From Shewanella loihica PV-4 (lineage in GTDB: Bacteria; Pseudomonadota; Gammaproteobacteria; Enterobacterales; Shewanellaceae), in contig NC_009092.1 of NCBI RefSeq assembly GCF_000016065.1, positions 2,542,001 to 2,606,000 on the forward strand: 64,000 bases of DNA. Reading direction: 5' to 3'. This document shows, piece by piece, positions 20,032 to 37,236 of this stretch. Each line of letters opens with the position of its first letter. Within the stretch, counting starts at the first letter, position 1. A program made the position numbers and the translations under genes. Under the pieces are notes generated by a model, which had not been told where the DNA came from, ran no database searches, and was given only the letters and a program-made list of their open reading frames with translations.

Positions 20032-20702
20032 GCAACCCTGATACCATCATCATAGATACCGGTTGCGCTAATTTGAGCTCGGTGCGTTACGCCTTCGAGC
20101 GGATCGGCGCCGACGTCGAGGTGAGTGACGATATCGACAAGATAAAGGCGGCCACCCGAGTCGTGTTGCCGGGCGTTGGTACCGCCAGGGCCGCCATGAA
20201 GGCGCTGAAGGACAAGAAGCTTATCGACACCATCTGCTCCCTCACCCAGCCTGTGCTCGGCGTCTGCCTCGGCATGCAGATGCTAACCAAGGCCTCACAG
20301 GAGCGCGGTGGCTTAAGTTACGGGAATAGTAGCAAGGACTGTCAGTGCCTTGGGCTGATCGACACTAATATCGAGCAGCTGGACGCAAAGGGCCTGCCGC
20401 TACCCCACATGGGCTGGAATCAGATAAGTCCGAGCGAGCACCCGCTGTTTGCCGGGGTTGCCGAGGGCAGCTATGTCTATTTCGTTCACAGCTACCGGGC
20501 ACCGCTGGGTGATTTCACCATCGCCAAGTGCGAATATGGCGAGGGTTTTAGCGCCGCCATCGCAAAAGATAACTTCATGGGGGTGCAGTTCCACCCGGAA
20601 AAAAGCGCCGCGGTGGGCGCCACCATATTAAGAAACTTTATGAAAATGAATGCCGGCAGCTTTGCAGGTAACCACAAATCTACACAGGAGAGCGCCCAAT
20701 GA
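20028..20702 (+). CDS. hisH: Imidazole glycerol phosphate synthase, glutamine amidotransferase subunit HisH
   Basis: Supplies ammonia to HisF. It has 224 residues with the class I amidotransferase triad: Cys80 in LGVCLGMQ, His189 and Glu191 in GVQFHPEKS. The C-terminal tail of about 12 residues ([10 protein letters not shown]) extends past the usual end and overlaps hisA by 4 nt. It overlaps hisB by 4 nt (ATGA), so both junctions suggest translational coupling. Confidence 0.97.
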
Positions 20703-21436
20703 TCATCCCTGCAATCGATCTCATCGAGGGCCAAGTGGTGCGTCTCTATCAAGGCGATTATGCCCAGCAGACCACCTTCGATCTGAGCCCGCTCGCCCAG
20801 CTACAGGCCTATCAGGCCCAAGGCGCCACCTGGCTGCATATCGTCGATCTGACCGGTGCAAAAGACCCTGACAGACGCCAGACCCGACTCATAGGTGAAC
20901 TGGTCGAGAATCTCGAGGCCAACATTCAGGTCGGCGGTGGCATTCGCAGCGAGGCCCAGGTCAAGGAGCTGTTAGATCTCGGGGTCAAGCGAGTGGTGAT
21001 AGGCTCCCTCGCCGTCAAACAGCCAGAGCTGGTGCAATCCTGGCTCGAGACCTATGGAAGTGATGCCATCTGCCTGGCACTGGACGTGAATATTAACCAG
21101 GCGGGTGAGAAGATAGTCGCCGTGTCTGGCTGGCAGAGTGGCGGCGGTAAGACGCTGGAATCTCTGGTGGCCACCTTCGCCCCCTATGGGCTCAAGCACG
21201 CCCTGGTTACCGACATCAGCCGTGACGGCACACTGCAAGGCAGCAATACCCAGCTCTATCAGGAGATCGTAGCGCGTTATCCCGATATTGAGTGGCAGGC
21301 CTCGGGCGGTATCGCCACCCTGGACGATGTGAGCGCCGTGCGTAATAGCGGCGCCAGCGGCATCATCATAGGCAAGGCCCTACTCATCAACAACTTTACC
21401 GTGCAGGAGGCGATCGCATGCTGGCCAAACGCATAG
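20699..21436 (+). CDS. hisA: ProFAR isomerase HisA
   Basis: TIM-barrel isomerase converting ProFAR to PRFAR. It has 245 residues. Catalytic Asp7 in [10 protein letters not shown], the phosphate-binding VGGGIRS and the second Asp in [13 protein letters not shown] are visible; the second half-barrel phosphate site is [10 protein letters not shown]. It overlaps hisH by 4 nt and hisF by 19 nt. Confidence 0.97.
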
Positions 21437-22191
21437 TTCCCTGTCTGGATGTCCGTGACGGTAAGGTGGTCAAGGGGGTTCAGTTTCGTAACCATGAGAT
21501 CGTCGGCGACATAGTACCCCTGGCCGCACGCTATGCCGCTGAGAGCGCCGATGAGCTGGTATTTTACGACATCACCGCCAGCGCCCACGACAGAGTGGTG
21601 GACAAGAGCTGGGTCAGCCGCGTCGCCGAGCAGATAGATATCCCCTTCTGCGTCGCCGGCGGCATCAAGAGTATCGAGCAGGCGCGGGAAAAGCTGGCGT
21701 TCGGCGCCGATAAGATCTCGATAAACTCGCCGGCGCTTAGCGATCCCGGCCTGATCGACCGCCTGCAGGATGAGTTTGGCCGCCAATGTATCGTGATAGG
21801 CATAGACTCTTACTATGATGCCGACACCGACAGCTACAAGGTGAAGCAATTTACCGGTGACGAGGCCGCCACCAAAGATACCCAGTGGTACACCCAAGAC
21901 TGGGTGGAAGAGGTGCAGAGACGTGGCTGCGGCGAGATAGTGCTGAACGTGATGAACCAGGATGGCGTTCGTCAGGGCTATGACATCAAGCAACTCGCCA
22001 TGGTGCGCGCCATCTGCGACGTGCCTCTCATCGCCTCAGGCGGCGCCGGCACCATGGAACACTTCCTCGAGGTGTTCACCCAGGCGGGTGTGGATGCGGC
22101 CCTCGCGGCCAGCGTCTTTCACAAAGGGATCATAGAGATAGAGGCGCTTAAGCGATACCTGCTCGACAATGGTGTACAGATGCGCCTGTAA
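21418..22191 (+). CDS. hisF: Imidazole glycerol phosphate synthase, cyclase subunit HisF
   Basis: TIM-barrel synthase partner of HisH, producing IGP and AICAR (the latter returns to purine synthesis). It has 257 residues. Asp11 in [27 protein letters not shown] and [11 protein letters not shown] are the catalytic and phosphate-binding segments. It overlaps the end of hisA by 19 nt. Confidence 0.97.
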
Positions 22192-22219
22192 CCGCCCCAA
22201 ATTTGTTCAAGGAATAAAG

Positions 22220-22840
22220 ATGAAAAACCTAGAAGATTTTAACAACTTAGATTGGGACAAACAGCAGGGGTTGCTGCCCGCAGTGGTCCAGAACCACCTC
22301 ACGGGTAAGGTGTTGATGCTGGGCTATATGAACCAAGAGGCGCTGGCCCAGACCCTGGCAAGCCGCAAGATCACCTTCTTCAGTCGCAGCAAGCAGCGCC
22401 TGTGGACCAAGGGCGAAACCTCGGGCAACACCCTAGATCTTATCGCCATCGACAGCGACTGTGACAACGACAGCCTGCTGGTGCAGGTGATCCCCAATGG
22501 CCCCACCTGCCACCTGGAACGGGAAAGCTGCTGGCCCGACGGCGAGGCGCACCCCTTTATCGACAATCTGGCGAATCTTATCGCCTCGCGCAGGGGACAA
22601 GATGCCAAGAGTAGCTACACCGCGCACCTGTTCGAGCGCGGCACCAAACGGATCGCCCAAAAGGTCGGCGAAGAGGGACTGGAGACCGCCCTGGCAGCCG
22701 CCACCCATGACAAGGAGGAGCTGATCAACGAGGCCTCAGATCTCATCTATCACCTGCTGGTGCTGCTTGAAGATCAAGATCTTAGCCTGGAGGATATCAC
22801 CGCCAACCTGCTAGCGCGTCACAGCGCCGCCAGCAAATAG
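22220..22840 (+). CDS. hisI: Bifunctional phosphoribosyl-AMP cyclohydrolase / phosphoribosyl-ATP pyrophosphatase
   Basis: Steps 2 and 3 of histidine synthesis in one polypeptide (HisIE type). ATG 22220, with AGGA about 8 nt upstream, gives 207 residues. The N-terminal cyclohydrolase (about 1-115) has [17 protein letters not shown] and [11 protein letters not shown]; the C-terminal pyrophosphatase (about 120-207) has a MazG-like [10 protein letters not shown] and [14 protein letters not shown]. The frame is open into hisF (to 22169) but that start lacks a ribosome site. Last gene of the operon. Confidence 0.96.
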
Positions 22841-22980
22841 ACTAAGGCTAGCGTAGCCATACAATCAAGGGCGTCCGGGAGAAGCGGCCGCCCTGATCTA
22901 AATCTTGCCATGACGGTTTATGCCCCCCCCCCTCTATCCCCTTTTCTTACTCCTCTGGGCGACTGAATCCACTATCTCTA

Positions 22981-23080
22981 AAATCCACTACGTTATCTCT
23001 AAAATCCGCTACGCTATCGCAAAAATCCACTTCCCTGGCGCAAAAATCCACACCGCTATTGCAAAAATCCACTCTGGCAC
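22981..23080. repeat. 21-bp tandem repeat array
   Basis: Four complete units with consensus AAATCCrCTnCnnTATCnCAA start at 22981, 23002, 23023 and 23044. They are flanked by a partial unit on each side (GAATCCACTATCTCTA from 22965, AAATCCACTCTGGCAC from 23065). The AAATCC start and CTA/CAA end are the most constant parts. Two helical turns per unit suggest either a minisatellite or a set of phased protein-binding sites. Confidence 0.7.
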
Positions 23081-23084
23081 ATAA

Positions 23085-23120
23085 TATACATTCATATACA
23101 AAAGAATACATGGTGTAACA
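23085..23120 (+). promoter_or_regulatory. 10-bp-phased TATACA repeats upstream of the GGDEF gene (site A)
   Basis: TATACA (23085), TATACA (23095), AATACA (23105) and a weaker GTAACA (23115), each exactly 10 bp apart. The same pattern precedes the regulator gene and both proteases. Direct half-sites at helical spacing are typical of OmpR/PhoB-type response regulator boxes. It ends 85 nt before the start codon. Confidence 0.5.
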
Positions 23121-23205
23121 AACGGACTTATTAGCAACAAATTCATTACAAACTCACCGATGAAATGCCCACTGATGTTAGCGTTTAAACAAGAGGTATC
23201 CGGTT

Positions 23206-24408
23206 ATGGCTAGGCGTTTTCGACAGCTCACACTCAAAACAACTACATGCTTTGCCTGTAGCTTAATACTACTGCTCTCTAGTCAAGTCGCGGCAAATGC
23301 TAGCCTTACTCAACCTCAGCCTATGCTCATGCCTTATGCACTCACATCTCACGCCCTCATGCCTGGCACGTTGGCCGCCCCCTATAGCATGGTCGCCACC
23401 GCAAGCCCTAGACTCGATCAGAGCGGCAAACCATTCCAGTTTGCCCCGGCGCAATCTAACCTGGCTTCCGTAGGCCTTTCCCAAATTTCCAAGGTCTCAG
23501 CATCACCTCTGCACGACCCAAGCCGTCAGGTCGGCTTTGCCTCCTCATGGCTGGGCGAGCTCAAAGCCCATTATCCGAATCTGCTGCTTCATTATCTTGC
23601 GCCGCTTATTGCCATCGCCTTGGTGATGCAGCGGGTTTACAGACAGGCTAGTACCCTATCCAGAACACGACTGGAGCAAGCGATCGATGAACGCACTCAG
23701 GCGCTGCAACTTGAAAACCTGCGCCTGCAGGAGATGAGTCACAGAGATCCCCTGACCGGCCTTAAGAATCGCCGCTTCATCGAAGAGATGATTGCCCAAG
23801 ACCTGAATCGGGTCGACCGCAGCTATGACGCCACGCAGCTAAGGGGTGAAGGCACGCCGAGCAAAGCCGACCTGCTGGCGCTCATCATAGATATCGATCA
23901 CTTTAAGCCCATTAATGACACCTATGGTCATCTGGCCGGCGATCGCGTACTGAGCCAGGTGGGTCAGCGACTGACGACACTGTTTCGCAACTATGATTAT
24001 GTGGTGCGCTGGGGCGGTGAAGAGTTTCTGGTGGTGGCACGCTTTATCGATCGCCAAGAGATAAACCACCTCGCAGAAAAAGTCCGTCACGCCATCGAGT
24101 CGATGGAGATCGAACTCGACGCTAAGCGCAACATCAAGATCACCGCCTCGGTCGGCGCCGCCCCCTACCCCTTCTCCACAGCCCAGGCGGACAGGATAAG
24201 CTGGGAGCAGGTGGTTCATCTTGCCGACATGGCGCTGTACCAAGCCAAGACCAGTTCGCGTAATACCTGGGTTAGTTACAGGGGGAGTGACCAGCTGCCT
24301 ATCCCGGATGAGCTGCAATTAGACCCCGCCAAGATCCCTCGAATCGCTATGGTTTCATCTAAGCCATTGTCTAGGCAGAGTCTCGATCTAAGGAAAGCCT
24401 CTCTATAA
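23206..24408 (+). CDS. GGDEF domain diguanylate cyclase
   Basis: Predicted membrane-anchored synthase of cyclic di-GMP, 400 residues. N-terminal signal peptide or anchor (residues 13-31), a variable periplasmic stretch of about 90 residues, a transmembrane helix (about 124-142, LLLHYLAPLIAIALVM), a short coiled coil, then the GGDEF domain (about 175-340). DPLTGLKNRRF starts the domain; the active site is GGEEF at 270-274, and RNYD at 261-264 is a product-inhibition I-site at the correct five-residue distance. Both are intact, so activity and feedback control are expected. It is monocistronic, with a terminator at 24481. Confidence 0.93.
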   Translation: MARRFRQLTLKTTTCFACSLILLLSSQVAANASLTQPQPMLMPYALTSHALMPGTLAAPYSMVATASPRLDQSGKPFQFAPAQSNLASVGLSQISKVSASPLHDPSRQVGFASSWLGELKAHYPNLLLHYLAPLIAIALVMQRVYRQASTLSRTRLEQAIDERTQALQLENLRLQEMSHRDPLTGLKNRRFIEEMIAQDLNRVDRSYDATQLRGEGTPSKADLLALIIDIDHFKPINDTYGHLAGDRVLSQVGQRLTTLFRNYDYVVRWGGEEFLVVARFIDRQEINHLAEKVRHAIESMEIELDAKRNIKITASVGAAPYPFSTAQADRISWEQVVHLADMALYQAKTSSRNTWVSYRGSDQLPIPDELQLDPAKIPRIAMVSSKPLSRQSLDLRKASL

Positions 24409-24480
24409 GCAAAGCTTCTAGCCTCACCATCTACAGCCTTATCTCGTTCTGAGTGCTAAGTGCTAAGTGCTAGGTTTTAT

Positions 24481-24509
24481 GTTTAAGGCAGGGAAGCCTT
24501 AAACTTTTT
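24481..24509 (+). terminator. Rho-independent terminator of the GGDEF gene
   Basis: GTTTAAGGC, loop AGGGAA, GCCTTAAAC, TTTTT: a perfect 9-bp stem 73 nt after the stop. Confidence 0.9.
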
Positions 24510-24716
24510 ATCTCCCATCAGCTTAAAACCCTTCCATTACGCGGTTAACTCATGTCACTAACTTATGCTGCTAGCTTATGTCGCTGGCTATAGTTTCTAG
24601 CCACTCTTCGAAATTAAGCTTCGAAAATAAACGTCAAAAACAGACTGGAAAATAAGCTTGTTTGCCCGGAAGTTGGACCGATTTAGCGCTAACTATTGCT
24701 TTCACAACAAGTTTTA

Positions 24717-24757
24717 TATACATAAACATACATTGGAATACAAAAGTGATATATAAT
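24717..24757 (+). promoter_or_regulatory. TATACA-type phased repeats and -10 box upstream of the response regulator (site B)
   Basis: TATACA (24717), CATACA (24727) and AATACA (24737) at exact 10-bp steps, followed by a perfect TATAAT at 24752-24757. No good -35 hexamer is at the right distance; the repeats occupy that region, the arrangement expected of an activator-dependent promoter. Autoregulation by the downstream regulator is inferred. Confidence 0.5.
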
Positions 24758-24805
24758 AACTGGCAATAAACCTTTTACAGTATTGCAACACTTCAGAGGG
24801 ATATC

Positions 24806-25546
24806 GTGAAGGATAATAACTGGATACTGATTGTCGATGACGATGCCGATCTGGCAAATCTGGTCGCCGATTTTCTCGAAATGAACGGCTATAAAACCGA
24901 GATAGAACACAACGGTGCCAAGGCCGTCGAGCGCATCATTGCCGAGCAACCTATGTTGGTTATCTTAGATGTGATGCTGCCCGACATGGACGGCTTGTCC
25001 ATCTGCCGCGCGGTGCGTCATGGCCATCCGGGGATCGAGGGTAGCTACAACGGCCCTATCCTGATGCTGACCGCCCTTAACAACGATATCGACGAAGTTG
25101 CCGGCCTGGAGACAGGCGCCGACGACTACCTAGCCAAACCCGTGCGCTCCCGGGTGTTGCTGGCCAGAGTCCGGGCCCTACTGAGACGTAAGCCTGAGCC
25201 ACCTGTCACCGAGAAGCTCAGTAAACTGCACAGCAATAACGAAAGCCTCATCGAATTTGACGGCCTCAGCATAGATAAGAAATATCAACGTATCCAACAA
25301 CATGGACAGGATATCGAACTCACCACTGCCGAATTTGAGCTGCTGTGGTTGCTGGCCAGCCGACCCGGCGAGATCTGCGACAGAGACTCTATCTCTGATT
25401 ACTTCAGCGACCTGGGATACGAGAGTTCCCATAGGACCATAGATCTCAGGGTGTCACGCATTCGCCGCAAGCTTGGCGACGATCCCAGCCACGCCACCCG
25501 CATCAAGACGATCCACGGCAAGGGTTATCTGTTTGTCGGAGACTGA
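24806..25546 (+). CDS. OmpR-family response regulator
   Basis: 246 residues: receiver domain (1-120) with acidic pocket DDD at 11-13, phosphoacceptor Asp55 in LVILDVMLPDMDG, Thr89 and Lys111; then a winged-helix DNA-binding domain (about 150-245) with LTTAEFELLWLLASRPGEI and IDLRVSRIRRKLGDDP and GKGYLFV. The start is GTG 24806 with AGAGG 6 nt upstream. The sensor kinase follows after 6 nt, forming an operon. It is the natural candidate to bind the TATACA-type repeats at four promoters here. Confidence 0.93.
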   Translation: MKDNNWILIVDDDADLANLVADFLEMNGYKTEIEHNGAKAVERIIAEQPMLVILDVMLPDMDGLSICRAVRHGHPGIEGSYNGPILMLTALNNDIDEVAGLETGADDYLAKPVRSRVLLARVRALLRRKPEPPVTEKLSKLHSNNESLIEFDGLSIDKKYQRIQQHGQDIELTTAEFELLWLLASRPGEICDRDSISDYFSDLGYESSHRTIDLRVSRIRRKLGDDPSHATRIKTIHGKGYLFVGD

Positions 25547-25552
25547 CTCTAG

Positions 25553-27835
25553 ATGCGAAAAAAGCCCATTGCCTTACTACTGCTCGCGATACTGATCAGC
25601 CTCAGCCTGGTCGGTATCACCGCACGTATGGATCCTCCCGAGGCAAGGGCCGACATCACAGAGCGAGAGGCGCAGCTGACGACGCTACCGGAAAACCAAC
25701 AGGGAGAGCTGCTCACCGCGCTGGTCAAACATTATCGCGACAACGACCCCCTCAAGAGCCTGGCCTATGGTGAACAGGCGCTGACCCTCTTCTCCAAGAT
25801 CCCCGACGATATCCGTAAGGTCACAGTGCTGAACAACATGGCCTGGATATATGTCTCCCTGAGTCAGTATGAAAATGCTCAGCTGCGCACCGACCAGGCC
25901 AAACAACTGGCCAAGGCAAGCAATGACCCACATGGACTCTTTACCGCACAGACCATGCAGGGGATCATCTATTGGCGCAAGGCGGACTATCAGACCGCCC
26001 TCAAGACCTTCGAACAGGCACAGGAGATAGCCAAGCAGGAGAAAAATCTCAGGGGCATCGCCAGCACGACCAACTATATGGCGATCATCTACCAGACTCT
26101 GGGGCAACCTGAGAAGGCGCTCGACTATTTTATCCGCGCCTTCAACATTCAAAAAGAGGTGGGGGATGAGAAGAGCATTGCCGTCTCCCTCAATAACATC
26201 GCCAACATGTATGGCACCAGCGGCAACTATAGCCTGGCGCTGGACTATCAACTGCAGTCGAGGAAGATTCGTGAGGAGCTGAACGATCTGCCTGGCCTGG
26301 CCCAGATCCTGGGGAATATCGGCCTCACCTACTTCTATCTGAAGGACAGCGAACAGGCCCTCTCTTACCTGCAACGCTCTCTGGGTTACTACGAATCCCT
26401 CAAGGATCAACAGGGCATCGCCGAGATCCACGGCAACCTAGGCATGGTCCATCTGCACGAGCATCAATTGGAGTCGGCGCTGTTGCAGTACCAAGAGGCC
26501 CTGGCGCTGGCCAAGGCGATCCCTGATACGGCGCTCGAGGCCAGGATCAACATAGATCTCGCCAATGCCTATATCGAACTCGATGACCCCGAACAGGCCT
26601 TCAAGCAGATCACCACGGGCTTAGATCAAGCCAATAAGCTGGGTATCGTCTCCCTCAGCGCCTATGGCCTGCTGACCCTCGCCAAGGTGGAGAAGCTACG
26701 CGGCAACAGTGAACGCGCCCTCACCTTGAGTGCGGCGGCGTTAAACAGCTCCCAGCAGCTGCAAGATAAGCGTATCGTGCGCGATGCACACGAGTTTCGC
26801 TATCAGCTCTACAAACATCTCGGACAGGCCGAACAGGCGCTGGCGAGTCTAGAAGCCTTTAAGCAGGTAAACGATGAAATGTTTAACTCTGAGAGCGATC
26901 AGAGAATGGCCTTTCTCCTCAGCCACTTCGAGGCCGAGCAGCAGGAGCAGCAGATAAAGTTGCTGCAGGCCGATCAGGCGCTGCAGAAGACCCAGCTGGC
27001 GCAACATACTTATCAGCGCAACGTATGGCTAGGCGGCCTAAGCGTCTTGTTTATCATCCTGCTCCTGCTGGTGAATCGTCATCACCAGCGCAAGATCAAC
27101 GCCTCCCTCAATCAGAACATTCAATCTCAACGTGAATTAATTCAAGCCGTTGCCCACGAGTTTAGATCCCCGCTTGCCCGGGTTCAGCTGGCCTTCGACA
27201 TGCTGGAAGAACAGTTTGAGCAGGACAAACCCACTCGCCTCATCGACACCATCAACAAAGGCCTGAGTGAACTGGAGAAGCTGATCAAAGAGGCGCTGGA
27301 TTTCATCCAGATAGAGAGTAAATCCAGGCCGTTGCACCTCTCACAGGTTAACCTCAATAAGCTGCTGGGTGAGTTGATGGACGCCAATAGTGTCCTCTAC
27401 CCCGACAAGACCTTTAAGCTGGAGGTTAACCCAAGCGAAGCTTGCCTGGTTAAGGCCGATAGCACCCAGATTGCGCGGGCATTTTCCAATATACTGCGCA
27501 ACGCGGCCCGATTCGCCCGCTCTCAGGTACTCATTAGCCTCAAGCAAGAAAAGTCCCGTATCCTGGTCATCATCGAAGATGATGGCCCAGGGATCCCCAC
27601 GGAGCAGAGAGAAAGGGTGTTTGAACCCTTCGTCAGGCTAGATCAAAGCCGTTGTCGGGACTCGGGCGGTATCGGCCTGGGTCTCGCGCTGGCCAAGAAG
27701 ATATGCGAAGCCCATGGTGGCGCCCTCACCATCTCCGCGTCCCAGCTCGGCGGCGCCAAGTTGTCGCTCGCCTGCCCTTTAGTTAACAGAGAGTCTGATA
27801 ACAAAAATTCTTCAACCAAGGCAGCTGAACACTAA
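25553..27835 (+). CDS. Tetratricopeptide-repeat sensor histidine kinase
   Basis: 760 residues. Signal anchor at 5-24; a long periplasmic TPR array (about 50-430, seven or more repeats such as AWIYVSLSQYENAQ, GNIGLTYFYLKDSEQAL, ANAYIELDDPEQAF); coiled coil (about 440-480); transmembrane helix (about 485-505); HisKA domain with phosphoacceptor His535 in AVAHEFRSPLARV; HATPase with N box FSNILRNAARF, G1 EDDGPGIP and G2 GGIGLGLALAKK. All catalytic boxes are intact. The periplasmic TPRs suggest sensing of a protein or peptide. The C-terminal codons belong to a 15-bp repeat that continues in frame beyond the TAA stop. Confidence 0.92.
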   Translation: MRKKPIALLLLAILISLSLVGITARMDPPEARADITEREAQLTTLPENQQGELLTALVKHYRDNDPLKSLAYGEQALTLFSKIPDDIRKVTVLNNMAWIYVSLSQYENAQLRTDQAKQLAKASNDPHGLFTAQTMQGIIYWRKADYQTALKTFEQAQEIAKQEKNLRGIASTTNYMAIIYQTLGQPEKALDYFIRAFNIQKEVGDEKSIAVSLNNIANMYGTSGNYSLALDYQLQSRKIREELNDLPGLAQILGNIGLTYFYLKDSEQALSYLQRSLGYYESLKDQQGIAEIHGNLGMVHLHEHQLESALLQYQEALALAKAIPDTALEARINIDLANAYIELDDPEQAFKQITTGLDQANKLGIVSLSAYGLLTLAKVEKLRGNSERALTLSAAALNSSQQLQDKRIVRDAHEFRYQLYKHLGQAEQALASLEAFKQVNDEMFNSESDQRMAFLLSHFEAEQQEQQIKLLQADQALQKTQLAQHTYQRNVWLGGLSVLFIILLLLVNRHHQRKINASLNQNIQSQRELIQAVAHEFRSPLARVQLAFDMLEEQFEQDKPTRLIDTINKGLSELEKLIKEALDFIQIESKSRPLHLSQVNLNKLLGELMDANSVLYPDKTFKLEVNPSEACLVKADSTQIARAFSNILRNAARFARSQVLISLKQEKSRILVIIEDDGPGIPTEQRERVFEPFVRLDQSRCRDSGGIGLGLALAKKICEAHGGALTISASQLGGAKLSLACPLVNRESDNKNSSTKAAEH

Positions 27836-27913
27836 GCGGTAGAACATAAGGCAACGGAACATCAAGCGGCCGCTCACCAAGCTGCCACAAGCAAAGCCCC
27901 TGAAAACAGATAA
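27818..27913 (+). repeat. 15-bp tandem repeat running through the kinase stop codon
   Basis: Starting from codon AAG at 27818, five-codon units read KAAEH, stop-AVEH, KATEH, QAAAH, QAATS, KAPEN, then R and a TAA at 27911. The kinase stop TAA (27833) occupies the position where other units have AAG or CAA, so a single C-to-T change from CAA would explain it. Confidence 0.65.
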
Positions 27914-28345
27914 GCTAGAAACAGAAAGTTGGTAAGGCCTGTAGAAACAGGTCTATAAAACCGTTCCGCTAATAATGCCAATTCGCAGCTCATCCCCCTT
28001 CCTCTTCTAATGCCCCTGCTAATCTCCCTGCTGATAAGCCAACTTTTCACGCCCAAGCGACGAGAATTCATCCGGATGCATCCCAACATTTTCCGCCTAA
28101 TGCACTAAACCATCCTAAAAAATGTTTGTTATTTGTTAAATACATTTGATCAAATGAATATCTTTGTATATAAATGTATATTCAAAGCTGTAAATCTTGC
28201 AGAGAAATCCCCCTCAGCAAGGGGAGCGGCGCCATGAGCCTAGCTCATCCCTACCACACACAATAACAACGAGGCACCTGAGCCGGCAGCGGTATAGCAG
28301 GATATGCGAGCTGCCAATGCAACAGGAAATCGTGGAGCATATAAG
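27914..28345. other. Spacer between the kinase and protease 1
   Basis: No credible gene. The first part continues loosely the 15-bp periodicity (gctagaaacagaaag). The second part carries the AT-rich promoter at 28146-28180. No clear terminator for the kinase operon was seen. Confidence 0.5.
28146..28180 (+). promoter_or_regulatory. Protease 1 promoter with inverted-orientation TATACA repeats (site C)
   Basis: -35 TTGATC (28146), 17-bp spacer, -10 TATAAA (28169). On the minus strand the same interval reads TATACA, TATACA, TATTCA at 10-bp steps (28180 to 28155), overlapping the -10. The -35 lies in a 12-bp palindrome, ATTTGATCAAAT, at 28144-28155. TTGATCAA-N12-GTATATAAATGTATA is repeated with identical spacing before protease 2. 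Confidence 0.55.
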
Positions 28346-30163
28346 ATGAAAATCAGTAAACTAGCAGGCATGATCTCCCTAATCACACTGGGCATCGCCG
28401 CCTCGAGTCAGGCAGCAGACAACCGCTATGTGGTTCAAGTCGATAATCAACACAAGGGCATAGTGAAGGCCCTGGCAGTCAAGTCGGGCGCGACAATCGA
28501 ACTCGACGGTGATGGCTTCTTCGCCGCCAGCTTTAACGCCCAGGATCTCGCCCAGGTCAAAGGCCTGTTAAACAATCCCCATGTGAAGCTGGTCGAGGAA
28601 GACCAACGCCGTACCCTGCAGTCACTCTATCAGGATGATGCAGGCGACCCTATGTTGAGCCAACTCACCCCCTATGCCATCTATCAGTCTCAGGCAGATC
28701 AAGTTGATTTCGTGCCGGGCGCCGGCATTAAGGTGTGCGTGATCGACTCGGGCCTGGATAGAAGCAACCCTGACTTTAACTGGGGAGCCATCACAGGCGA
28801 TAACGATTCAGGCACAGGCGATTGGGATGTCAACGGCGGACCTCACGGCACCCACGTTGCCGGTACCATAGGCGCGGCAGACAACGGCATAGGTGTCGTT
28901 GGTATGGCACCTGGGGTCGATATGCATATCATCAAGGTCTTTACCGCTAGCGGCTGGGCCTACTCTTCTGATCTGGCTCATGCCACCGACCTCTGTAGCC
29001 AGGCGGGCGCCAACATCATCAGCATGAGTCTAGGTGGTGGCGGTGCGAGCAGCATTGAATCTAACGCCTTCGAAGCCTTTACCCAGGCAGGTGGCCTGGT
29101 GGTCGCCGCTGCGGGCAACGATGGTAACAACGCCCGCTCCTACCCAGCCGCCTACCCCGCCGTCATGATGGTTGGCGCCAACGATGCCGATAACAATATC
29201 GCCAGTTTCTCACAATTTCCTAGCTGTAGCAGTGGCCGAGGCAAACATGCAACCCAAGATGAAATGACCTGCGTAGAAGTCACCGCCGGCGGCGTACAAA
29301 CGCTGTCTACCTATCCTGCCGAGATGGCCACCATAGCCGCTATGTCGGCGGATGATGTTTTCTTCGAGGCCTCGGCCATGGAAAATATCGGCAGCGCCAG
29401 TGGCAGCACCTATTTCATGGGCACGGCCGAAACCTTAGACACCCGAGCCCAGGGAAGTGTCTGCGTTATCGATCGCGGCAACATCTCCTTCCATGACAAG
29501 GTCGCCAACTGTGAGGCCTCTGGCGGTATCGGCGCCATCATCGTCAATAACGTCGACGGCATGCTATATGGCACGCTGGGTGACGCCAACAGCACTCAGA
29601 TTCCCGCCGTGGGTGCGGCGCTCAGTGACCGCACAGCCCTGATTTCAGCGACTCAAGCCTCGGTGTCTATCGCGAGTGGCGATTACGGTTATATGAGCGG
29701 CACCTCGATGGCGACCCCTGCCGTGTCGGGCGTAGCGGCACTGGTGTGGTCAAACTTCCCAGAGTGTACTGGTAGCGAGATCCGTCAAGCACTTAAGGCG
29801 ACCGCCGAAGATCAGGGCATACCTGGACACGATGAGTATTTTGGCTATGGCATAGTCAAGGCCAAGGCGGCTTATGACTATCTGCAAAGCAGTGGTTGTA
29901 ATGGTCAAGGCGGCACGCCGGGAACCTTTAGCCTAAACGCCGAGTATGAATACGCGCGAGGCAAACACAGGGTTAACCTGACGACGGTCGCGGCATCGAG
30001 CCCTAAGGTAGATATCTACCGTAACGAGCAGCTCATCGCCACGGTAGCGGCAAACACCCTCTATACCGATAGCTTTGGTCGCAAGGCGACTGGCAACTTC
30101 AACTACAAGGCCTGTGAGGAAAATACCCAGATCTGTACCGAGACCCAAAGCGTCAACTTCTAG
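28346..30163 (+). CDS. Secreted S8 (subtilisin-like) serine protease with PA domain (protease 1)
   Basis: 605 residues from ATG 28346 (GGAG 9 nt upstream; an upstream in-frame ATG at 28304 would destroy the signal peptide). Signal peptide 1-23 (ends SSQAA), inhibitory propeptide about 24-95, catalytic domain with Asp134 (CVIDSGLD), His167 (PHGTHVAGT), oxyanion Asn in AAAGNDGNN and Ser454 (SGTSMATP). A protease-associated insert (about 345-430, VCVIDRGNISFHDKV) interrupts it. The C-terminal 80 residues form a beta-rich Fn3-like domain with a C-x6-C pair, shared with protease 2. Extracellular degradation is expected. Confidence 0.93.
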   Translation: MKISKLAGMISLITLGIAASSQAADNRYVVQVDNQHKGIVKALAVKSGATIELDGDGFFAASFNAQDLAQVKGLLNNPHVKLVEEDQRRTLQSLYQDDAGDPMLSQLTPYAIYQSQADQVDFVPGAGIKVCVIDSGLDRSNPDFNWGAITGDNDSGTGDWDVNGGPHGTHVAGTIGAADNGIGVVGMAPGVDMHIIKVFTASGWAYSSDLAHATDLCSQAGANIISMSLGGGGASSIESNAFEAFTQAGGLVVAAAGNDGNNARSYPAAYPAVMMVGANDADNNIASFSQFPSCSSGRGKHATQDEMTCVEVTAGGVQTLSTYPAEMATIAAMSADDVFFEASAMENIGSASGSTYFMGTAETLDTRAQGSVCVIDRGNISFHDKVANCEASGGIGAIIVNNVDGMLYGTLGDANSTQIPAVGAALSDRTALISATQASVSIASGDYGYMSGTSMATPAVSGVAALVWSNFPECTGSEIRQALKATAEDQGIPGHDEYFGYGIVKAKAAYDYLQSSGCNGQGGTPGTFSLNAEYEYARGKHRVNLTTVAASSPKVDIYRNEQLIATVAANTLYTDSFGRKATGNFNYKACEENTQICTETQSVNF

Positions 30164-30250
30164 TCACGGAGATTTGTCGCTGCAGCCAATCAAGGGCGAT
30201 TTGGTAAGGTGCTGATAGCCTTAGAGATGAGTGCTGTAGCGGCTGACGCT

Positions 30251-30415
30251 AGCCATTGAGCAATAGCTCATCAAGCGTGAGCTCATTGGGCACTGTCTCG
30301 CTAAGAAAAAGCTCGCTAAGAAAAGGCTCGCTAAGAAAAAGCTCGTAAAGCACAAGCTGATTGAGCACAAACTCGTTAGACACGAGCGACTTAGGCGTAA
30401 GTAAATTGAAGGGCG
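30251..30415 (+). repeat. 15-bp tandem array, part 1 (11 units)
   Basis: Eleven contiguous 15-bp units with consensus near GCTCGCTAAGAAAAA; units at 30296, 30311 and 30326 are nearly identical. One frame reads L(A/I/V)KKK-like pentapeptides from 30267 to a stop at 30402 but has no start codon. It lies in the 3' untranslated region of protease 1, before its terminator. Confidence 0.75.
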
Positions 30416-30446
30416 GAGATCATCTCATTTGATCTCTGCCCTTTTT
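30409..30446 (+). terminator. Rho-independent terminator of protease 1
   Basis: A 14-bp stem with one G-U pair (arms 30409-30422 and 30430-30443), 7-nt loop, TTTTT. It is 246 nt downstream of the stop codon because the repeat array is interposed. Confidence 0.85.
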
Positions 30447-30450
30447 CTCG

Positions 30451-30585
30451 ATTAGACAGAACCCAATTAGCCAGAGCGGGATTAGACAAAGCTCGGCTAG
30501 ACAAATCTAGGCTAGACAAAGCTCGACTCGACAAATCTCGGCTAGACAGGGCTCGATTAAACAGCGCCCGATTAAGCAACGTTAG
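30451..30585 (+). repeat. 15-bp tandem array, part 2 (9 units)
   Basis: Nine 15-bp units, consensus GCTAGACAAAGCTCG (best copies 30481, 30496, 30511, 30541). Rotated, this is GCTCGGCTAGACAAA, similar to the part 1 unit, so both arrays belong to one family in the same orientation. The minus strand reads a repeating RALSS pentapeptide, but there is no supported gene. Confidence 0.75.
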
Positions 30586-30832
30586 TTGAATCCCAGTGTT
30601 TGTCGTCTAAGGATTCGTCGATCCTAGTACATTTCCCCAACTCATACACTGCTTCACCACTTCCATACTATATACAGAGCACTCGCCTTCTCAATCGCGT
30701 CTATCTCCAATCAAATTCTATTTATTTATAAATATCAGTCTATTGCGAGCACTCAGTCAGATTAACACACAAAAATCTATATACATAAATTCACATTTAA
30801 GACGAATTTGTGACATTTTTGATAAACAAATG

Positions 30833-30880
30833 TTGATCAAAATCAAATCGAGGTATATAAATGTATACATATCGAATACA
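30833..30880 (+). promoter_or_regulatory. Protease 2 promoter with TATACA-type repeats (site D)
   Basis: -35 TTGATC (30833), 17-bp spacer, -10 TATAAA (30856), matching the protease 1 promoter. The minus strand over 30867-30852 reads TATACATTTATATACC, 15 of 16 identical to site C. Plus-strand TATACA (30864) and AATACA (30875) follow 11 bp apart. Confidence 0.5.
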
Positions 30881-30976
30881 TTTGTATGTGATATAGCCCT
30901 ATTGAAGACCTCATCAAGTAACTGGGTGCGACAACACTGAGTACTTATAAATTTTATAACAACAGGAGAACAGTTG

Positions 30977-33900
30977 ATGACTACACCCAAGAAATCATCT
31001 TCCAAGCTGCTCACAACACTATTAGGTGCCTCACTCTTAACTGGTTTGAGCCCTGTAGCACTGGCCGTAACCAAGGCGCCGCTGAAGGCAATGCCGCAGT
31101 ACGATAACCAAAGCGTACTAGTCAAGTTCAAACAGAAAGTCACTAAGAAAGATCGTAAGGCGCTGACCCGTAACCTGGGCGTCTCTTTCAAAGATAAGAA
31201 TAACGACGGCGTGGATGACCGCCTGCGTAACATCGCCAATGGTCGCCTGGCCGTGCTGGATCTGGGCCAGGGTCGCCAGGTAGAGGCCGTCCTCAACAGC
31301 CTGAAAAACCACCCTTTAGTTGAATACGCAGAGCCTAACTACATAGTACACACCACTGCGGTGCCCAACGATACTTCATATGCAAGCCTTTACGGCATGC
31401 AGAAAATCCAAGCTGAAACGGCCTGGGACTATGTGATCGGTGATTCTTCTGTTGTTGTTGGTGTGATCGACACCGGCTTCGACTTCAACCACCCAGATCT
31501 AGCTGACAACATCTGGACCAACCCAAATGAGATCGCGGGCAACGGTATCGATGACGACGGCAACGGCTACATTGATGATATCCACGGTATCTCAGCTATC
31601 CTGGATAACGGTAACCCGTCTGATACAGGTGCTCATGGCACTCACGTATCTGGCACTATCGGTGCCAAAGGTAACAACGCCCTGGGTGTTGTCGGGGTAA
31701 ACTGGCAAACCAACATGGTCGGCTGTAGCTTCCTCGGTACAGGCGGCGGTACCCTAGCCGACGGCGTTCAATGTATCGACTATATGATCGGTCTTAAAAA
31801 CGCCGGCAACAACGTCCGCGTGCTGAACAACAGCTGGGGTGGCGGTGGCTTCACCCAAACCCTAAAGGATGCCATCTCGGCGGCCAACAATGCCGACATC
31901 CTCTTCGTTGCGGCTGCGGGTAACGATTCTGCAGACATAGACAACGGTGGTTTCTACCCTGCCGGTTACGATGTGCCTAACGTAGTAGCGGTAGCCTCTA
32001 CCGATAGCGCCGACAACCTGTCTGGTTTCTCTAACTATGGCGATCAACTGGTTCACCTGGCTGCACCGGGTTCATTCATCCTGTCAACGACGCCTAATAA
32101 CAGCTACGACACTTTCAGCGGTACCTCTATGGCGACACCGCACGTAGCCGGCGCCGCAGCGCTGATCCTGGCCGGTAACCCGAACCTGACCACGTCTCAG
32201 CTAAAAAGTGTACTCATGAATACTGGTGATGCGCTTACCGCTTTGCAAGGTAAAACCATCTCAGGTAAGCGCCTGAACCTTGCCAACGCCCTGATCGATT
32301 CAGGCGGAGCGGGTCCTTCTTTCTTCATGGAAGCAACACCAACTAAATCGACCGTCAACCAAGGCGACAGCCAAGCTTATGCTATCGATCTGGTGGCTGC
32401 GGGCGGTTTCAATGGCACAGCGACTATGAGTCTGAGCAGCGTACCTGAGCTCAACGCAGACGTGGTATTTGCTCAAAACCCAGTTGCGGGCGACACCACT
32501 AACACAATGACGATCAATACGACCGAGCAAACTGCGCCAGGTACGTACAACATGACGGTCAACGCCACCGACGGCAGCGTTTCTAAAAACATCAACCTGG
32601 AGCTGAAAGTATGGCCTCAAGGTACTGTTTCTACTATGTTGACCAGCAACCAAGTCGTGCCTATCAGCGATAACGATCCTTCATTCCCTGCAACCAGCAG
32701 CATCAATGTTCCATACGACATGACGCTGACTCAGGTTGAAGTATTTGTTGACATCACCCACGCTTGGGCACCTGACATGCTTGTGTCTGTCATTTCACCA
32801 GCCGGCGAAGAAGTCATTCTGCACGACCGTGCGGGCGGCAATGGTACAGGCCTTGTTGGCAACTTTATTCCTACCGAATACGAGCTGGACAACGCATTGG
32901 GTGAGTGGACACTGAAAGTTGTTGACGAAGTTGCGGGCGACACGGGCGCTATCAACAGCTGGTCGCTAAAACTGACTGGCGCACCATCGGCAGGCACGGA
33001 CTTCGTACCAAACGTACAGATAGCGACGCCTGCTAACCAAGGCGCGTACCTGACCGGTGAAACCGTCAGCTTCAGTGCAAGCTCAAACGACACCGAAGAC
33101 GGCGACCTGACGTCTGGCATCGTTTGGACCTCAAGCATCGACGGCGTGATCGGTAACGGCGCATCGTTCACTAAGTCTAACCTGTCGGTAGGCGACCACG
33201 TGATCACCGCGACCTCTACTGATTCAGCGGGCCAGGCTAGCACAGAAACTGTTGAGCTATCTGTTGCCGATGCTAACACTACAGTAAGCGGTGCTAATAG
33301 CACGGCAATCGCGATGCCTGAGATGGGCGGCAAGGTATTCACTGAAATCGACCTACCTACCGGCGTTGCTATCGATGCAATCGAAGTCAATGTCGATATC
33401 TCGTTCGAATCGGTTCAATACCTGAACGTGTGGCTACAGTCTCCGTCTGGCACCCTAGTTAAACTGGTGACTTGGCGTCAGTTCTGGAACAAAGACCTGG
33501 TTAAGACCTTCAACCCGGTTGAATTCGCAGGCGAGTCGAGCATGGGTACATGGCGCCTGTTTGTAGAAGATACCTCTAGCTACATCATGAATGGCGTACT
33601 GAACAACTGGAGCATCTCGGTATCTAACGGTGATGCGGTACTTCCACCTCCTGCCGAAAACACAGCGCCTGAATTGACTATCACTGCACCTACTGGTGGC
33701 ACTAGCTTCAACCTAGGCGACAGCATCACCTTCGAAGGCAGCGCAATTGACGCAGAAGAAGGTAACATCAGTTCACGTATCGACTGGTACTCAAACCTCA
33801 ACGGTAAGATTGGTACTGGCGGTCTATTCAGCACTAACTCACTAAGCGTTGGCGACCACATAGTGACAGCGGTTGCGTGGGACAATGATGAAGCATTCGA

Positions 33901-34453
33901 CCAGAAGCAAGTATCTCTAACTGTTGTGGACGCTCCGGCTAACGAAGCGCCAGTGGCTGACTTCAGCTTCGCTGCTGAGTTCTTGAACGTACAGTTCTCT
34001 GACCTATCAGGTGACACTGACGGTGCGGTCACTACTCACTCTTGGGATTTCGGCGACGGTGCAAGCTCAACGCTAGCTAACCCTTCACACAGCTACGCAG
34101 CTGCGGGTACTTACACTGTTACCCTAACTGTAAGCGATGATGACGGCGCCGAGCACTCAGTCACTAAAGAAGTAACTGTAACTGAGCCATCTATCGTACT
34201 AGAAGGCAGCGCAAGCAGTGATGGTAGCCGTGTGGTAGCAAGCTTGTCTTGGACTTCGAAGAATAAGGTAAACTTCGATGTATACCGCGACGGTGCCCTA
34301 GTAAGCTCTGGTGTAAGAAAAACAAGCTACACAGATCGCTTCAGCTCTAACGCTACTAGCTTCACTTACCAAGTATGTGAAACTGGCACAAGCACCTGTT
34401 CTTTAGAGGAAACCATTGTGGCTACTCCTAAGACTAAAGGTAGAAACAAGTAA
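30977..34453 (+). CDS. Secreted multidomain S8 serine protease with P domains and PKD domain (protease 2)
   Basis: 1158 residues from ATG 30977 (AGGAG 8 nt upstream). Signal peptide 1-31, propeptide about 40-125, catalytic domain about 130-430 with Asp165 (GVIDTGFD), His220 (AHGTHVSGT) and Ser384 (SGTSMATPHVAG). Then a beta domain (about 445-545), P/Homo-B domain 1 (about 550-670), Ig-like domain 1 (about 675-770), P domain 2 (about 775-885), Ig-like domain 2 (about 890-990), PKD (about 995-1080, SWDFGDGASS), and the Fn3-like C-terminal domain shared with protease 1. P domains are typical of extracellular convertase-like proteases. All catalytic residues are intact. Confidence 0.93.
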   Translation: MTTPKKSSSKLLTTLLGASLLTGLSPVALAVTKAPLKAMPQYDNQSVLVKFKQKVTKKDRKALTRNLGVSFKDKNNDGVDDRLRNIANGRLAVLDLGQGRQVEAVLNSLKNHPLVEYAEPNYIVHTTAVPNDTSYASLYGMQKIQAETAWDYVIGDSSVVVGVIDTGFDFNHPDLADNIWTNPNEIAGNGIDDDGNGYIDDIHGISAILDNGNPSDTGAHGTHVSGTIGAKGNNALGVVGVNWQTNMVGCSFLGTGGGTLADGVQCIDYMIGLKNAGNNVRVLNNSWGGGGFTQTLKDAISAANNADILFVAAAGNDSADIDNGGFYPAGYDVPNVVAVASTDSADNLSGFSNYGDQLVHLAAPGSFILSTTPNNSYDTFSGTSMATPHVAGAAALILAGNPNLTTSQLKSVLMNTGDALTALQGKTISGKRLNLANALIDSGGAGPSFFMEATPTKSTVNQGDSQAYAIDLVAAGGFNGTATMSLSSVPELNADVVFAQNPVAGDTTNTMTINTTEQTAPGTYNMTVNATDGSVSKNINLELKVWPQGTVSTMLTSNQVVPISDNDPSFPATSSINVPYDMTLTQVEVFVDITHAWAPDMLVSVISPAGEEVILHDRAGGNGTGLVGNFIPTEYELDNALGEWTLKVVDEVAGDTGAINSWSLKLTGAPSAGTDFVPNVQIATPANQGAYLTGETVSFSASSNDTEDGDLTSGIVWTSSIDGVIGNGASFTKSNLSVGDHVITATSTDSAGQASTETVELSVADANTTVSGANSTAIAMPEMGGKVFTEIDLPTGVAIDAIEVNVDISFESVQYLNVWLQSPSGTLVKLVTWRQFWNKDLVKTFNPVEFAGESSMGTWRLFVEDTSSYIMNGVLNNWSISVSNGDAVLPPPAENTAPELTITAPTGGTSFNLGDSITFEGSAIDAEEGNISSRIDWYSNLNGKIGTGGLFSTNSLSVGDHIVTAVAWDNDEAFDQKQVSLTVVDAPANEAPVADFSFAAEFLNVQFSDLSGDTDGAVTTHSWDFGDGASSTLANPSHSYAAAGTYTVTLTVSDDDGAEHSVTKEVTVTEPSIVLEGSASSDGSRVVASLSWTSKNKVNFDVYRDGALVSSGVRKTSYTDRFSSNATSFTYQVCETGTSTCSLEETIVATPKTKGRNK

Positions 34454-34465
34454 GTTGTAACCCAG

Positions 34466-34497
34466 GGAAGGCTCTGCCAAGAGCCTTCCTTTTTTTC
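34466..34497 (+). terminator. Rho-independent terminator of protease 2
   Basis: GGAAGGCTCT, loop GCCA, AGAGCCTTCC followed by seven T: a perfect 10-bp stem 13 nt after the stop. Confidence 0.93.
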
Positions 34498-34534
34498 TAT
34501 CTAAATCTAATTTTAGCTAACGCTATCTAACGTT

Positions 34535-35746
34535 ATGAAAAGCAATCACTCCGCCGCTGGATTGACCTACATCCAGGCCGGGCAGACACCCGAGGCACAA
34601 GCGGTGAACAACAACCGACTCTCCCTATTCGCGATACTCCTGCTATTTATGCTAACGCCCTTCACCCATGGCTCGAGCGAATTTCGCGCCCATCAGAGCC
34701 GCTATGACGACCCACTACTCAATATGGTTGCCGAGGACAGGGAAACGCTTGAAAAGTTTAACGCCCAGAGCAAGGCAACTATCGGCTCAGTAGAGAGGAA
34801 AACCAAGCAGATCGACTCTATGTCTCAGGCAATTAAAACGAACACAAAGACCGGAATACCGCTAGCTAGCGAGCATAAGAAGGCTTCAGCCACTCTAGGG
34901 GGGGAAGCCGCGGCAACATCGATCGCAAAGCGGAACAAGCCCACGGCGTCAACACAGGGTTTCATGCTATCGGTAAAAGAGCAACGCTTAAGCAGAGCAG
35001 CCGGCGAGACCGCGATTTACCACTTCTCGACACTTGTAGACAGGACGCTTGAAGACAAAGCACCTGAAGACAGAGCACTTGAACAGAGAGCGCTTATAGA
35101 CACTAGCCTTACAGGAACGAGTTTGGTTAGTGAGAAATTAGGGGGACAGATATGCCTGAGCCTGGCCTCCTCGCTTCCCGGCGCCAGGCTCTCTAAGGAA
35201 AGGGTTCATCCTGGCGACACATTCAGCCTCTTGGTGCCATCAAATAGTGACGCCCGATGGGGCGACTACATGTTTACCGTGACCGCCTCGGCTGACGGCG
35301 GCAATTGGGTCAAGCAGCAAAGTGTCAATCTTAGCCTGCTTCCCGGCGACATACGCGAGATACAGCAGGCCAACTTCACTTGGCATCCCATCACTGACAA
35401 TGCTCCTGAGGGGATAGTGAGCCGCATCGCCGTCGAAGATGAACTTGCCGCCTTTGGCGTGCGCGTTTTAGTTAATGTCTCCCATACCTGGCACAGGGAT
35501 CTTAGTATGACTCTCACCTCCCCCACGGGCACAAGCTATCAGTTGGTGAGCGAAAGCCATGCTGGAGGAGACAATCAGCATCGGGAATATCGTACCCAGG
35601 CCTTCAATCACGAGGCGATAAAAGGCGACTGGATCCTCAAGGTGAGTGACCTGGCCGCAGGCGACATAGGCACGCTAAGGGGCTGGCAACTTCTCATCTC
35701 GGGTTACTCGGCCGCCCAGCCACAAGATATAAGTGCTAGTCCTTAA
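34535..35746 (+). CDS. Orphan P-domain protein related to the C-terminal part of protease 2
   Basis: 403 residues, no peptidase domain. One membrane or signal segment (about 28-46) after a 27-residue N-terminus, a low-complexity linker (about 50-195) that includes a 15-bp-encoded D(R/K)(T/A)LE repeat at 169-193, then a beta domain (about 200-270) and a C-terminal P/Homo-B domain (about 275-395; SHTWHRDLSMTLTSPTG, KGDWILKVSDLAAGDIGTLRGWQ). Both folded parts align by eye with residues about 450-670 of protease 2. It may be an accessory or decoy partner, or a remnant of a duplicated protease. It is separated from protease 2 by that gene's terminator; no ribosome site is obvious, so expression is uncertain. 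Confidence 0.7.
   Translation: MKSNHSAAGLTYIQAGQTPEAQAVNNNRLSLFAILLLFMLTPFTHGSSEFRAHQSRYDDPLLNMVAEDRETLEKFNAQSKATIGSVERKTKQIDSMSQAIKTNTKTGIPLASEHKKASATLGGEAAATSIAKRNKPTASTQGFMLSVKEQRLSRAAGETAIYHFSTLVDRTLEDKAPEDRALEQRALIDTSLTGTSLVSEKLGGQICLSLASSLPGARLSKERVHPGDTFSLLVPSNSDARWGDYMFTVTASADGGNWVKQQSVNLSLLPGDIREIQQANFTWHPITDNAPEGIVSRIAVEDELAAFGVRVLVNVSHTWHRDLSMTLTSPTGTSYQLVSESHAGGDNQHREYRTQAFNHEAIKGDWILKVSDLAAGDIGTLRGWQLLISGYSAAQPQDISASP
35039..35113 (+). repeat. 15-bp tandem repeat inside the orphan P-domain gene
   Basis: Five in-frame 15-bp units (35039, 35054, 35069, 35084, 35099) encode DRTLE, DKAPE, DRALE, QRALI, DTSLT. Same period as the intergenic arrays 4.5 kb upstream, with the shared GACAAAGC core. 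Confidence 0.7.
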
Positions 35747-35917
35747 TCCTCCATAGACCAAAGTCCATAGTCCTTGCTGTAACATGAGCCAGATACGTAC
35801 TGAATCACAGCTGACCAACACCCGAGAATCCTAGCCCTGAAAGCCGCCATTTCGCGCGAGAAAACGCCAATTTTATCGTGCATCTTACATTCACCTTCTT
35901 CCAATGAGAACACTCTG

Positions 35918-35970
35918 TTTTCGCAAAAGAATTAAAGCGAAAAAGCTGTTGTCCCATAGCAGTTCTGCTA
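35918..35970 (+). promoter_or_regulatory. Inverted repeats upstream of purC
   Basis: TTTTCGC (35918-35924) and GCGAAAA (35937-35943) are inverted arms, followed by a perfect 14-bp palindrome TAGCAGTTCTGCTA at 35957-35970, 52 nt before the purC start. The first is only loosely like a PurR box; control by purines is a guess from position. Confidence 0.35.
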
Positions 35971-36021
35971 CAATTTCGCCGTAATTTCCTCCTCTAACAT
36001 TACATATAAAAATAGTACCCT

Positions 36022-37128: not shown

Positions 37129-37204
37129 TGACGCTAAGCTTCTGATGCTCAACCTGGCATAATTTGCCAGGGCAAGATGAAAGAGCCAGGATTAGCTAAA
37201 AACT

Positions 37205-37236
37205 AAGGCCAGCGTTCAACAGACGCTGGCCTTTTT
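37205..37236 (+). terminator. Rho-independent terminator of purC
   Basis: AAGGCCAGCGT, 7-nt loop, ACGCTGGCCTT and TTT: an 11-bp perfect stem. Confidence 0.92.

What the first reader, a model, noticed from the sequence alone, without database searches (positions are those of the whole stretch)
23085..30880. A shared 10-bp-phased TATACA repeat at four promoters in one 8-kb cluster
Site A (23085, 23095, 23105, weak 23115) and site B (24717, 24727, 24737) are direct hexamer repeats (TATACA/CATACA/AATACA) at exact 10-bp steps before the GGDEF gene and the OmpR-type regulator. Site C (28155-28180, minus strand) has TATACA, TATACA, TATTCA at 10-bp steps, and site D (30852-30867, minus strand) is 15/16 identical to C, before the two secreted proteases. 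I did not find the pattern at other promoters in the window. Helically phased direct repeats are the known binding mode of OmpR/PhoB regulators, and one is encoded in the middle of the cluster. Orientation differs: A and B are upstream or at -35, C and D are reversed and overlap -10, suggesting opposite effects on regulator/GGDEF and protease transcription. AT-richness near promoters could inflate the similarity.
Basis: partly seen in the sequence, partly recalled or inferred. Interest (0 to 1): 0.75.

Follow-up and report, generated by a model that had tools for sequence, protein, structure and literature searches.

The report
Self-regulating protease cluster with RstA-like boxes
A marine Shewanella gene cluster for two secreted protein-digesting enzymes carries the same evenly spaced DNA tag at several of its promoters, very likely the binding site of the regulator made in the cluster, and the tag is kept in related species.

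Summary
TATACA-type repeats at 10-bp steps lie at sites A, B and C; D is 15/16 identical to C. In the whole genome, 4 of 6 exact WATACA-N4-HATACA matches are in this cluster. In 126 Shewanella genomes, all 9 exact three-repeat matches lie in this cluster in the 5 genomes with close orthologues; the other 121 show control level. Two genomes outside Shewanella with the same regulator, kinase and proteases keep the boxes.

The core, TACA-N6-TACA, is the published "classic RstA box" (PMC4117788, passages), and the regulator's DNA-binding domain matches solved RstA domains best. Site A does not lie upstream: it overlaps and follows a conserved TTGCAA-N17-TAATAT, so it groups with C and D (TTGATC-N17-TATAA in 14 of 14 protease promoters) as a likely repressor site. 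Only B sits at -35 before a good -10, the activator position. D is composite and degenerate.

Binding, phosphorylation and the sign of control are untested. It looks like a private RstA-like regulon with a TPR sensor kinase and a deseasin-like protease: a new member of a known kind.

The parts
23059..23087 (+). Promoter-like TTGCAA (23059-23064) - 17 bp - TAATAT (23082-23087) of the GGDEF gene
   Evidence: TTGCAA-N17-TAATAT in 5 of 5 species, once in the window; weak consensus match, not listed by the scan
23085..23120 (+). Site A: TATACA 23085, TATACA 23095, AATACA 23105, weak GTAACA 23115; overlaps -10 and predicted start region of the GGDEF gene
   Evidence: three exact half-sites in 4 of 5 species, two in L077
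23206..24408 (+). Diguanylate cyclase (GGDEF domain); GGEEF motif and RxxD seen by eye
24717..24742 (+). Site B: TATACA, CATACA, AATACA at 10-bp steps, ending 9 bp before -10 (position of an OmpR/PhoB-type activator)
   Evidence: three half-sites in 5 of 5 Shewanella species, one TACA-N6-TACA pair in L123 and L211
24752..24757 (+). -10 TATAAT of the regulator-kinase operon; no -35 recognised by eye
   Evidence: gap of 9 bp in 5 of 5, 8 bp to a -10-like hexamer in L123 and L211; not listed by the scan
24806..25546 (+). OmpR/PhoB-type response regulator, RstA-like
   Evidence: Pfam Response_reg + Trans_reg_C; best NCBIfam model RstA, 207.2 bits, below the 330 cut-off; DBD best in PDB: RstA 2naz, 2mlk, 4nhj
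25553..27835 (+). Sensor histidine kinase with TPR array between two hydrophobic segments (probably periplasmic sensor)
   Evidence: best NCBIfam model RstB, 195.3 bits, below cut-off 478; hydrophobic segments seen by eye, no topology program run
28146..28174 (+). Promoter-like TTGATC-N17-TATAAA of subtilase 1
   Evidence: 7 of 7 species; not listed by the scan
28155..28180 (-). Site C: TATACA, TATACA, TATTCA at 10-bp steps over the -10
   Evidence: TACA-N6-TACA pair in 7 of 7 species; conservation falls off after the box
28346..30163 (+). Subtilase 1 (Peptidase_S8 with PA domain), signal-like N-terminus by eye
30833..30861 (+). Promoter-like TTGATC-N17-TATAAA of subtilase 2
   Evidence: 7 of 7 species; not listed by the scan
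30852..30889 (.). Site D: minus-strand TATACATTTATATACC plus plus-strand TATACA/AATACA (11 bp apart; 10 bp apart in L123 and L211), over -10 and predicted start region
30977..34453 (+). Subtilase 2 with P domains and PKD, relative of deseasin MCP-01
34535..35746 (+). P-domain protein with no protease domain found; conserved downstream neighbour

Best explanation
The repeats are tandem binding boxes of the RstA-like response regulator encoded in the cluster. One DNA-binding domain sits on each TACA-type half-site, all on one face of the helix. The regulon is private to the cluster. At its own operon (B) the boxes take the place of the -35 element, 9 bp before a perfect -10, the place from which OmpR/PhoB regulators recruit polymerase, so the operon is probably self-activated. 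At the diguanylate cyclase (A) and the two subtilases (C, D) the boxes cover the -10 and start region behind a conserved -35-like hexamer, so the bound regulator probably blocks polymerase. A TPR kinase, probably periplasmic at its sensor, would set the switch. Shown: repeats, rarity, conservation, promoter spacing, co-occurrence of kinase and protease. Inferred: binding, dependence on phosphorylation, sign of control, signal.
For: Rarity and location. In 6 other carrier genomes 21 of 27 exact TATACANNNNHATACA matches are in the cluster, control 2. Footprint alignments. Same-strand TACA pairs in 26 promoters of 7 species: 30 at 10 bp, 10 at 20 bp, at most 7 at any other distance up to 40 bp (many promoters are orthologous, so not independent). 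The core equals the published classic RstA box TACANNNNNNTACA (PMC4117788, passages). DBD best hits in the PDB are RstA. The residues that I align with kpRstA Arg199 and Arg207 are Arg in all 7 species with the boxes; R207A abolished DNA binding of kpRstA (passage). Kinase and full-length subtilase 2 occur in the same 9 of 394 genomes, linked on one strand each time. TTGATC-N17-TATAA in 14 of 14 protease promoters, TTGCAA-N17-TAATAT in 5 of 5 cyclase promoters.
Against: No binding or expression data. The generic sigma-70 scan lists none of the four promoters and finds no more sites (8) than shuffles (mean 7.4). Motif presence is confounded with presence of the target genes, which travel with the regulator. 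Two paralogues in the genome score higher on the RstA model (253.6 and 248.3 against 207.2 bits) and could bind the same core. The bare TACA core is not enriched over its reversed control genome-wide (8 against 11). Site D has no exact 10-bp TACA pair in any of the 5 Shewanella species. In 9 distant carriers of the same gene set the box is poorly kept: an exact 10-bp TACA pair before the regulator in 3 of 9 and before the protease in 1 of 9.
Confidence: 0.68

Rival explanations
1. The boxes are real sites of this regulator, but it activates all four units; A, C and D belong to start sites further downstream that the sequence does not reveal.
For: OmpR-family regulators often activate, and autoregulated operons with co-activated neighbours are common (recalled). 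The stretches from the boxes to the start codons (about 110-170 nt) could hide another start. The scan does not list the promoters I propose.
Against: By eye no -10 is conserved at the matching distance downstream of A or C, and conservation at C falls off after the box. TTGATC-N17-TATAA is kept in 14 of 14 protease promoters.
Confidence: 0.17
2. The boxes are bound by another RstA-like regulator of the cell, such as the paralogues at genome positions 94873 or 1016900.
For: Both score higher on the RstA model; the TACA core is shared by the family.
Against: All 60 sampled Shewanella genomes have relatives of the regulator (orthology of these two paralogues was not worked out), while exact triple boxes occur only in the 5 close carriers of the cluster, though the target genes are confined in the same way. 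Matches to TACATNTNGYTACA, nearer the E. coli box, lie elsewhere in this genome: 2, control 1.
Confidence: 0.1
3. AT-rich promoter sequence gives chance similarity, with conservation due to recent descent only.
For: All sites are AT-rich; some genomes are close (sensor part of the kinase 98% and 90% identical).
Against: 0 of 20,000 shuffles reach the count; genome-wide rarity; at A the half-sites and their spacing stay while spacers and flanks change; kept in two genomes outside Shewanella with a 59% identical kinase.
Confidence: 0.02

Closest known systems
RstA and the RstA box (E. coli, Klebsiella; PMC4117788, passages)
   Same: OmpR/PhoB architecture; DBD most similar in the PDB sequence search; TACA-N6-TACA direct repeat; the two arginines of the recognition helix kept
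   Different: Below the RstA model cut-off; three half-sites at A and B (a weak fourth at A) instead of two; A/T before TACA; local regulon; kinase with a TPR sensor
PhoB/Pho box and OmpR class activators (recalled)
   Same: Tandem repeats about one helix turn apart; B ends 9 bp before a good -10 with no -35
   Different: Different half-site sequence; three of the four sites lie over the -10 and start
Deseasin MCP-01 of Pseudoalteromonas sp. SM9913 (PMC6606773, passages; PDB 3vv3)
   Same: Catalytic domain clearly homologous (E 4.5e-115); marine secreted protease
   Different: There the authors saw no gene beside mcp01 that looked related to its regulation and called for identification of the sensor (2019); here a two-component system is linked

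Membership tests
OmpR/PhoB response regulators | Receiver domain plus Trans_reg_C winged helix | tested here: met
   Pfam
OmpR/PhoB response regulators | Binds direct repeats about one helix turn apart | not testable with these tools
   Repeats are present at 10 bp; binding needs an experiment
RstA (NF007977 equivalog) | Score above the curated cut-off of 330 bits | tested here: not met
   207.2 bits
RstA (NF007977 equivalog) | Target sites with the classic RstA box TACANNNNNNTACA | tested here: inconclusive
   Present at A, B and C; absent as an exact pair at D in 5 Shewanella species; that they are targets is inferred
RstA (NF007977 equivalog) | Stricter E. coli consensus TACATNTNGTTACA | tested here: not met
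   TACATNTNGYTACA has 2 matches in the own genome, neither in the cluster
RstA (NF007977 equivalog) | Partner kinase RstB | tested here: not met
   RstB model 195.3 bits, cut-off 478; TPR array instead
Deseasin-type subtilases | S8 catalytic domain with P domain and PKD (definition recalled) | tested here: met

The most novel reading that the evidence does not exclude
This is a missing control circuit for protein-degrading enzymes in some marine gammaproteobacteria: a periplasmic TPR kinase senses a product of extracellular proteolysis (peptides or a cell-envelope cue), and an RstA-like regulator, by box position alone, raises its own level while shutting off c-di-GMP synthesis and the two subtilases, or releases them together when the signal is present.
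Probability: 0.22. Interest if true: 0.72.

Novelty: new member of a known kind. Interest (0 to 1): 0.52.

Why it matters
How marine bacteria sense protein and switch on secreted proteases was stated as open for MCP-01 in 2019 (PMC6606773, passages). Here a kinase, a regulator, its predicted boxes and a deseasin-like protease lie together, and kinase and protease occur in the same 9 of 394 genomes, so the question can be tested with a few promoters and one protein. It would also be a clean case of position-dependent control by one box, and it predicts coupling of c-di-GMP to proteolysis.

Tried and rejected
Rfam search of 20000-40000: 0 matches up to E 1, so no described family explains the conserved leader of subtilase 2. 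The two exact box matches outside the cluster: one lies in CTTGTATATACAAG between a gene that by eye is GntR/HutC-like and an amidohydrolase-like one (L006; the HutC reading is recalled, no domain search run); the other lies inside an ORF (L001). Neither was counted as part of the regulon. Literature: searches (listings only) showed no paper on this system; the library is limited, so this is not proof that none exists. BfmR site literature (listing only) was not pursued. Distant carriers (9 loci): only 3 of 9 regulator promoters and 1 of 9 protease promoters have an exact TACA-N6-TACA; inverted TACA elements were seen by eye at some and not tested. In the first alignment of site A the aligner misplaced L077; re-read it directly. 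No structure prediction was run, since it could not show DNA binding. Of the 80 loci I examined L123 alone; of L122 I used only the title and contig length.

Full report
What is there. The window is positions 2,542,001-2,606,000 of a single 4,602,594-bp contig. The genus is Shewanella: a genome of the same group, G033, has a contig of the same length (179,042) as the record of Shewanella aquimarina that holds the 88% identical regulator. After genes of histidine synthesis (by eye) lie a diguanylate cyclase, an OmpR-type regulator, a TPR histidine kinase, two subtilases and a P-domain protein.

Observation. The repeats are at the stated coordinates. Own genome: WATACANNNNHATACA has 6 matches, 4 in the cluster, 0 in the reversed control. 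The three-repeat pattern at up to 3 mismatches has 8: 3 with 0-1 mismatch, all in the cluster; 5 with 3 mismatches, all elsewhere; control 2. The bare core TACA-N6-TACA-N6-TACA at up to 1 mismatch is not rare: 8 matches, 4 in the cluster, control 11. In the four 250-nt upstream segments 5 TACA-N6-TACA pairs stand against a shuffle mean of 0.09 and a maximum of 4 in 20,000.

Genus test. In 126 Shewanella genomes the pattern TATACAN4HATACAN4WATACA at up to 1 mismatch has 27 matches in 20 genomes. Twelve are in the 5 genomes with a close orthologue of the kinase (sensor part 75-100% identical), all in the cluster; these hold all 9 exact matches. The other 121 genomes have 15, all with one mismatch, one of them in a distant carrier (G030) away from its cluster; the reversed control has 15 (sums mine). 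Six other carriers: 27 exact TATACANNNNHATACA matches, 21 in the cluster (G267 3 of 3, G493 3 of 4, G033 4 of 5, G081 4 of 5, G082 4 of 5, G041 3 of 5), control 2. Three of the 6 others have the same 16 letters as the HutC-like site of the own genome.

Footprints. In five Shewanella species half-sites and spacing are kept; at A the spacers and flanks change around them, at B nearly the whole stretch from TTTTATATACA to TATATAATA is invariant, at C conservation falls off after the box, at D it runs on through the leader. Three exact half-sites at A stand in 4 of 5 species, two in L077. Outside Shewanella, L123 (Pseudoalteromonas sp. T1lg48; regulator 72%, kinase 59%) and L211 (unnamed order-mate G267 of another family; 72% and 59%) keep TACA-N6-TACA before the regulator and both subtilases; I found no cyclase orthologue beside them. 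The same-strand spacing histogram over 26 promoters has 30 pairs at 10 bp and 10 at 20 bp, at most 7 elsewhere up to 40 bp; related promoters count several times.

Positions. TTGATC-N17-TATAA precedes both subtilases in 7 of 7 species each and occurs at no other place in the window; TTGCAA-N17-TAATAT precedes the cyclase in 5 of 5 and occurs once in the window. So A, C and D cover -10 and the predicted start. B ends 9 bp before TATAAT in 5 of 5 and 8 bp before a -10-like hexamer in L123 and L211, with no -35 seen. The generic promoter scan lists none of these four and finds no excess over shuffles (8 against 7.4). The sign of control is therefore inference from position.

The regulator. Its best NCBIfam model is RstA with 207.2 bits, cut-off 330, and its DNA-binding domain matches RstA entries best in the PDB. 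PMC4117788 (passages) gives the classic box TACANNNNNNTACA, contacts by Arg199, Val203 and Arg207, and loss of binding in R207A. By my count along the alignment the window has R, L and R there. All 7 species with the boxes have Arg at the Arg207 place; the 9 distant carriers have His. Among those 9, 3 regulator promoters and 1 protease promoter have an exact pair. This fits a specificity that tracks the residue, but it is one split between two groups.

Link to the protease. In 394 genomes of the order the kinase (E up to 1e-70, best 2 candidates scored per genome) occurs in 9, and subtilase 2 matched to residue 1154 or beyond occurs in the same 9, downstream on the same strand within about 3.2 kb of the kinase's end each time; 19 more genomes have only a shorter match ending near residue 670 (lists compared by me). 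The protease is related to deseasin MCP-01. For MCP-01, casein tripeptides induce expression and the sensor was still to be found in 2019 (PMC6606773, passages).

Verdict. It works like OmpR/PhoB regulators using RstA boxes; it is not filed as RstA, because the curated cut-off and the RstB partner are not met.

Noticed in passing
window 30866-30976: About 110-nt stretch from site D to the start of subtilase 2 has 95% mean column identity in 4 Shewanella species; no Rfam match. May hold post-transcriptional control.
   Followed up: partly
window 30833-30846: TTGATCAAAATCAA fits the FNR/EtrA consensus TTGAT-N4-ATCAA (recalled); exact in 3 of 7 species, only TTGATC kept in all 7.
   Followed up: partly
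window 30808-30832: Conserved block around TTTGTGACATTTTTGATAAACAAATG before the subtilase-2 promoter; possible CRP-type half-site, not tested.
   Followed up: no
window 22960-23080: By eye, imperfect tandem units around GCAAAAATCCAC upstream of site A, also in L075, largely missing in L077 and L078.
   Followed up: no
G000:C1:4476086 (L006): TATACAAGTAAATACA beside CTTGTATATACAAG next to a gene that looks GntR/HutC-like by eye; the same 16 letters occur once each in G033, G081 and G082.
   Followed up: partly
G000:C1:1861476-1861499 and 3766727-3766750: Two sites containing TACATNTNGYTACA, nearer the E. coli RstA box (control 1 match); possible sites of an RstA paralogue.
   Followed up: partly
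L079-L083, L212-L215: Distant carriers: a TTTGAATTTTGT element stands before the regulator in all 5 Shewanella loci and exactly also before the protease in L081 and L083; inverted TACA/TGTA elements at the protease in L213 and L214 (by eye); His at the Arg207 place.
   Followed up: partly
L123 11482-13349: Subtilase 1 reads as two overlapping ORFs in Pseudoalteromonas sp. T1lg48, a frame break or sequencing error; one ORF in L211.
   Followed up: no
window 34535-35746: P-domain protein without a protease domain, beside subtilase 2 in the window, 4 other Shewanella species (32-66% identical) and L211 (35% over 194 residues): fast-changing.
   Followed up: no
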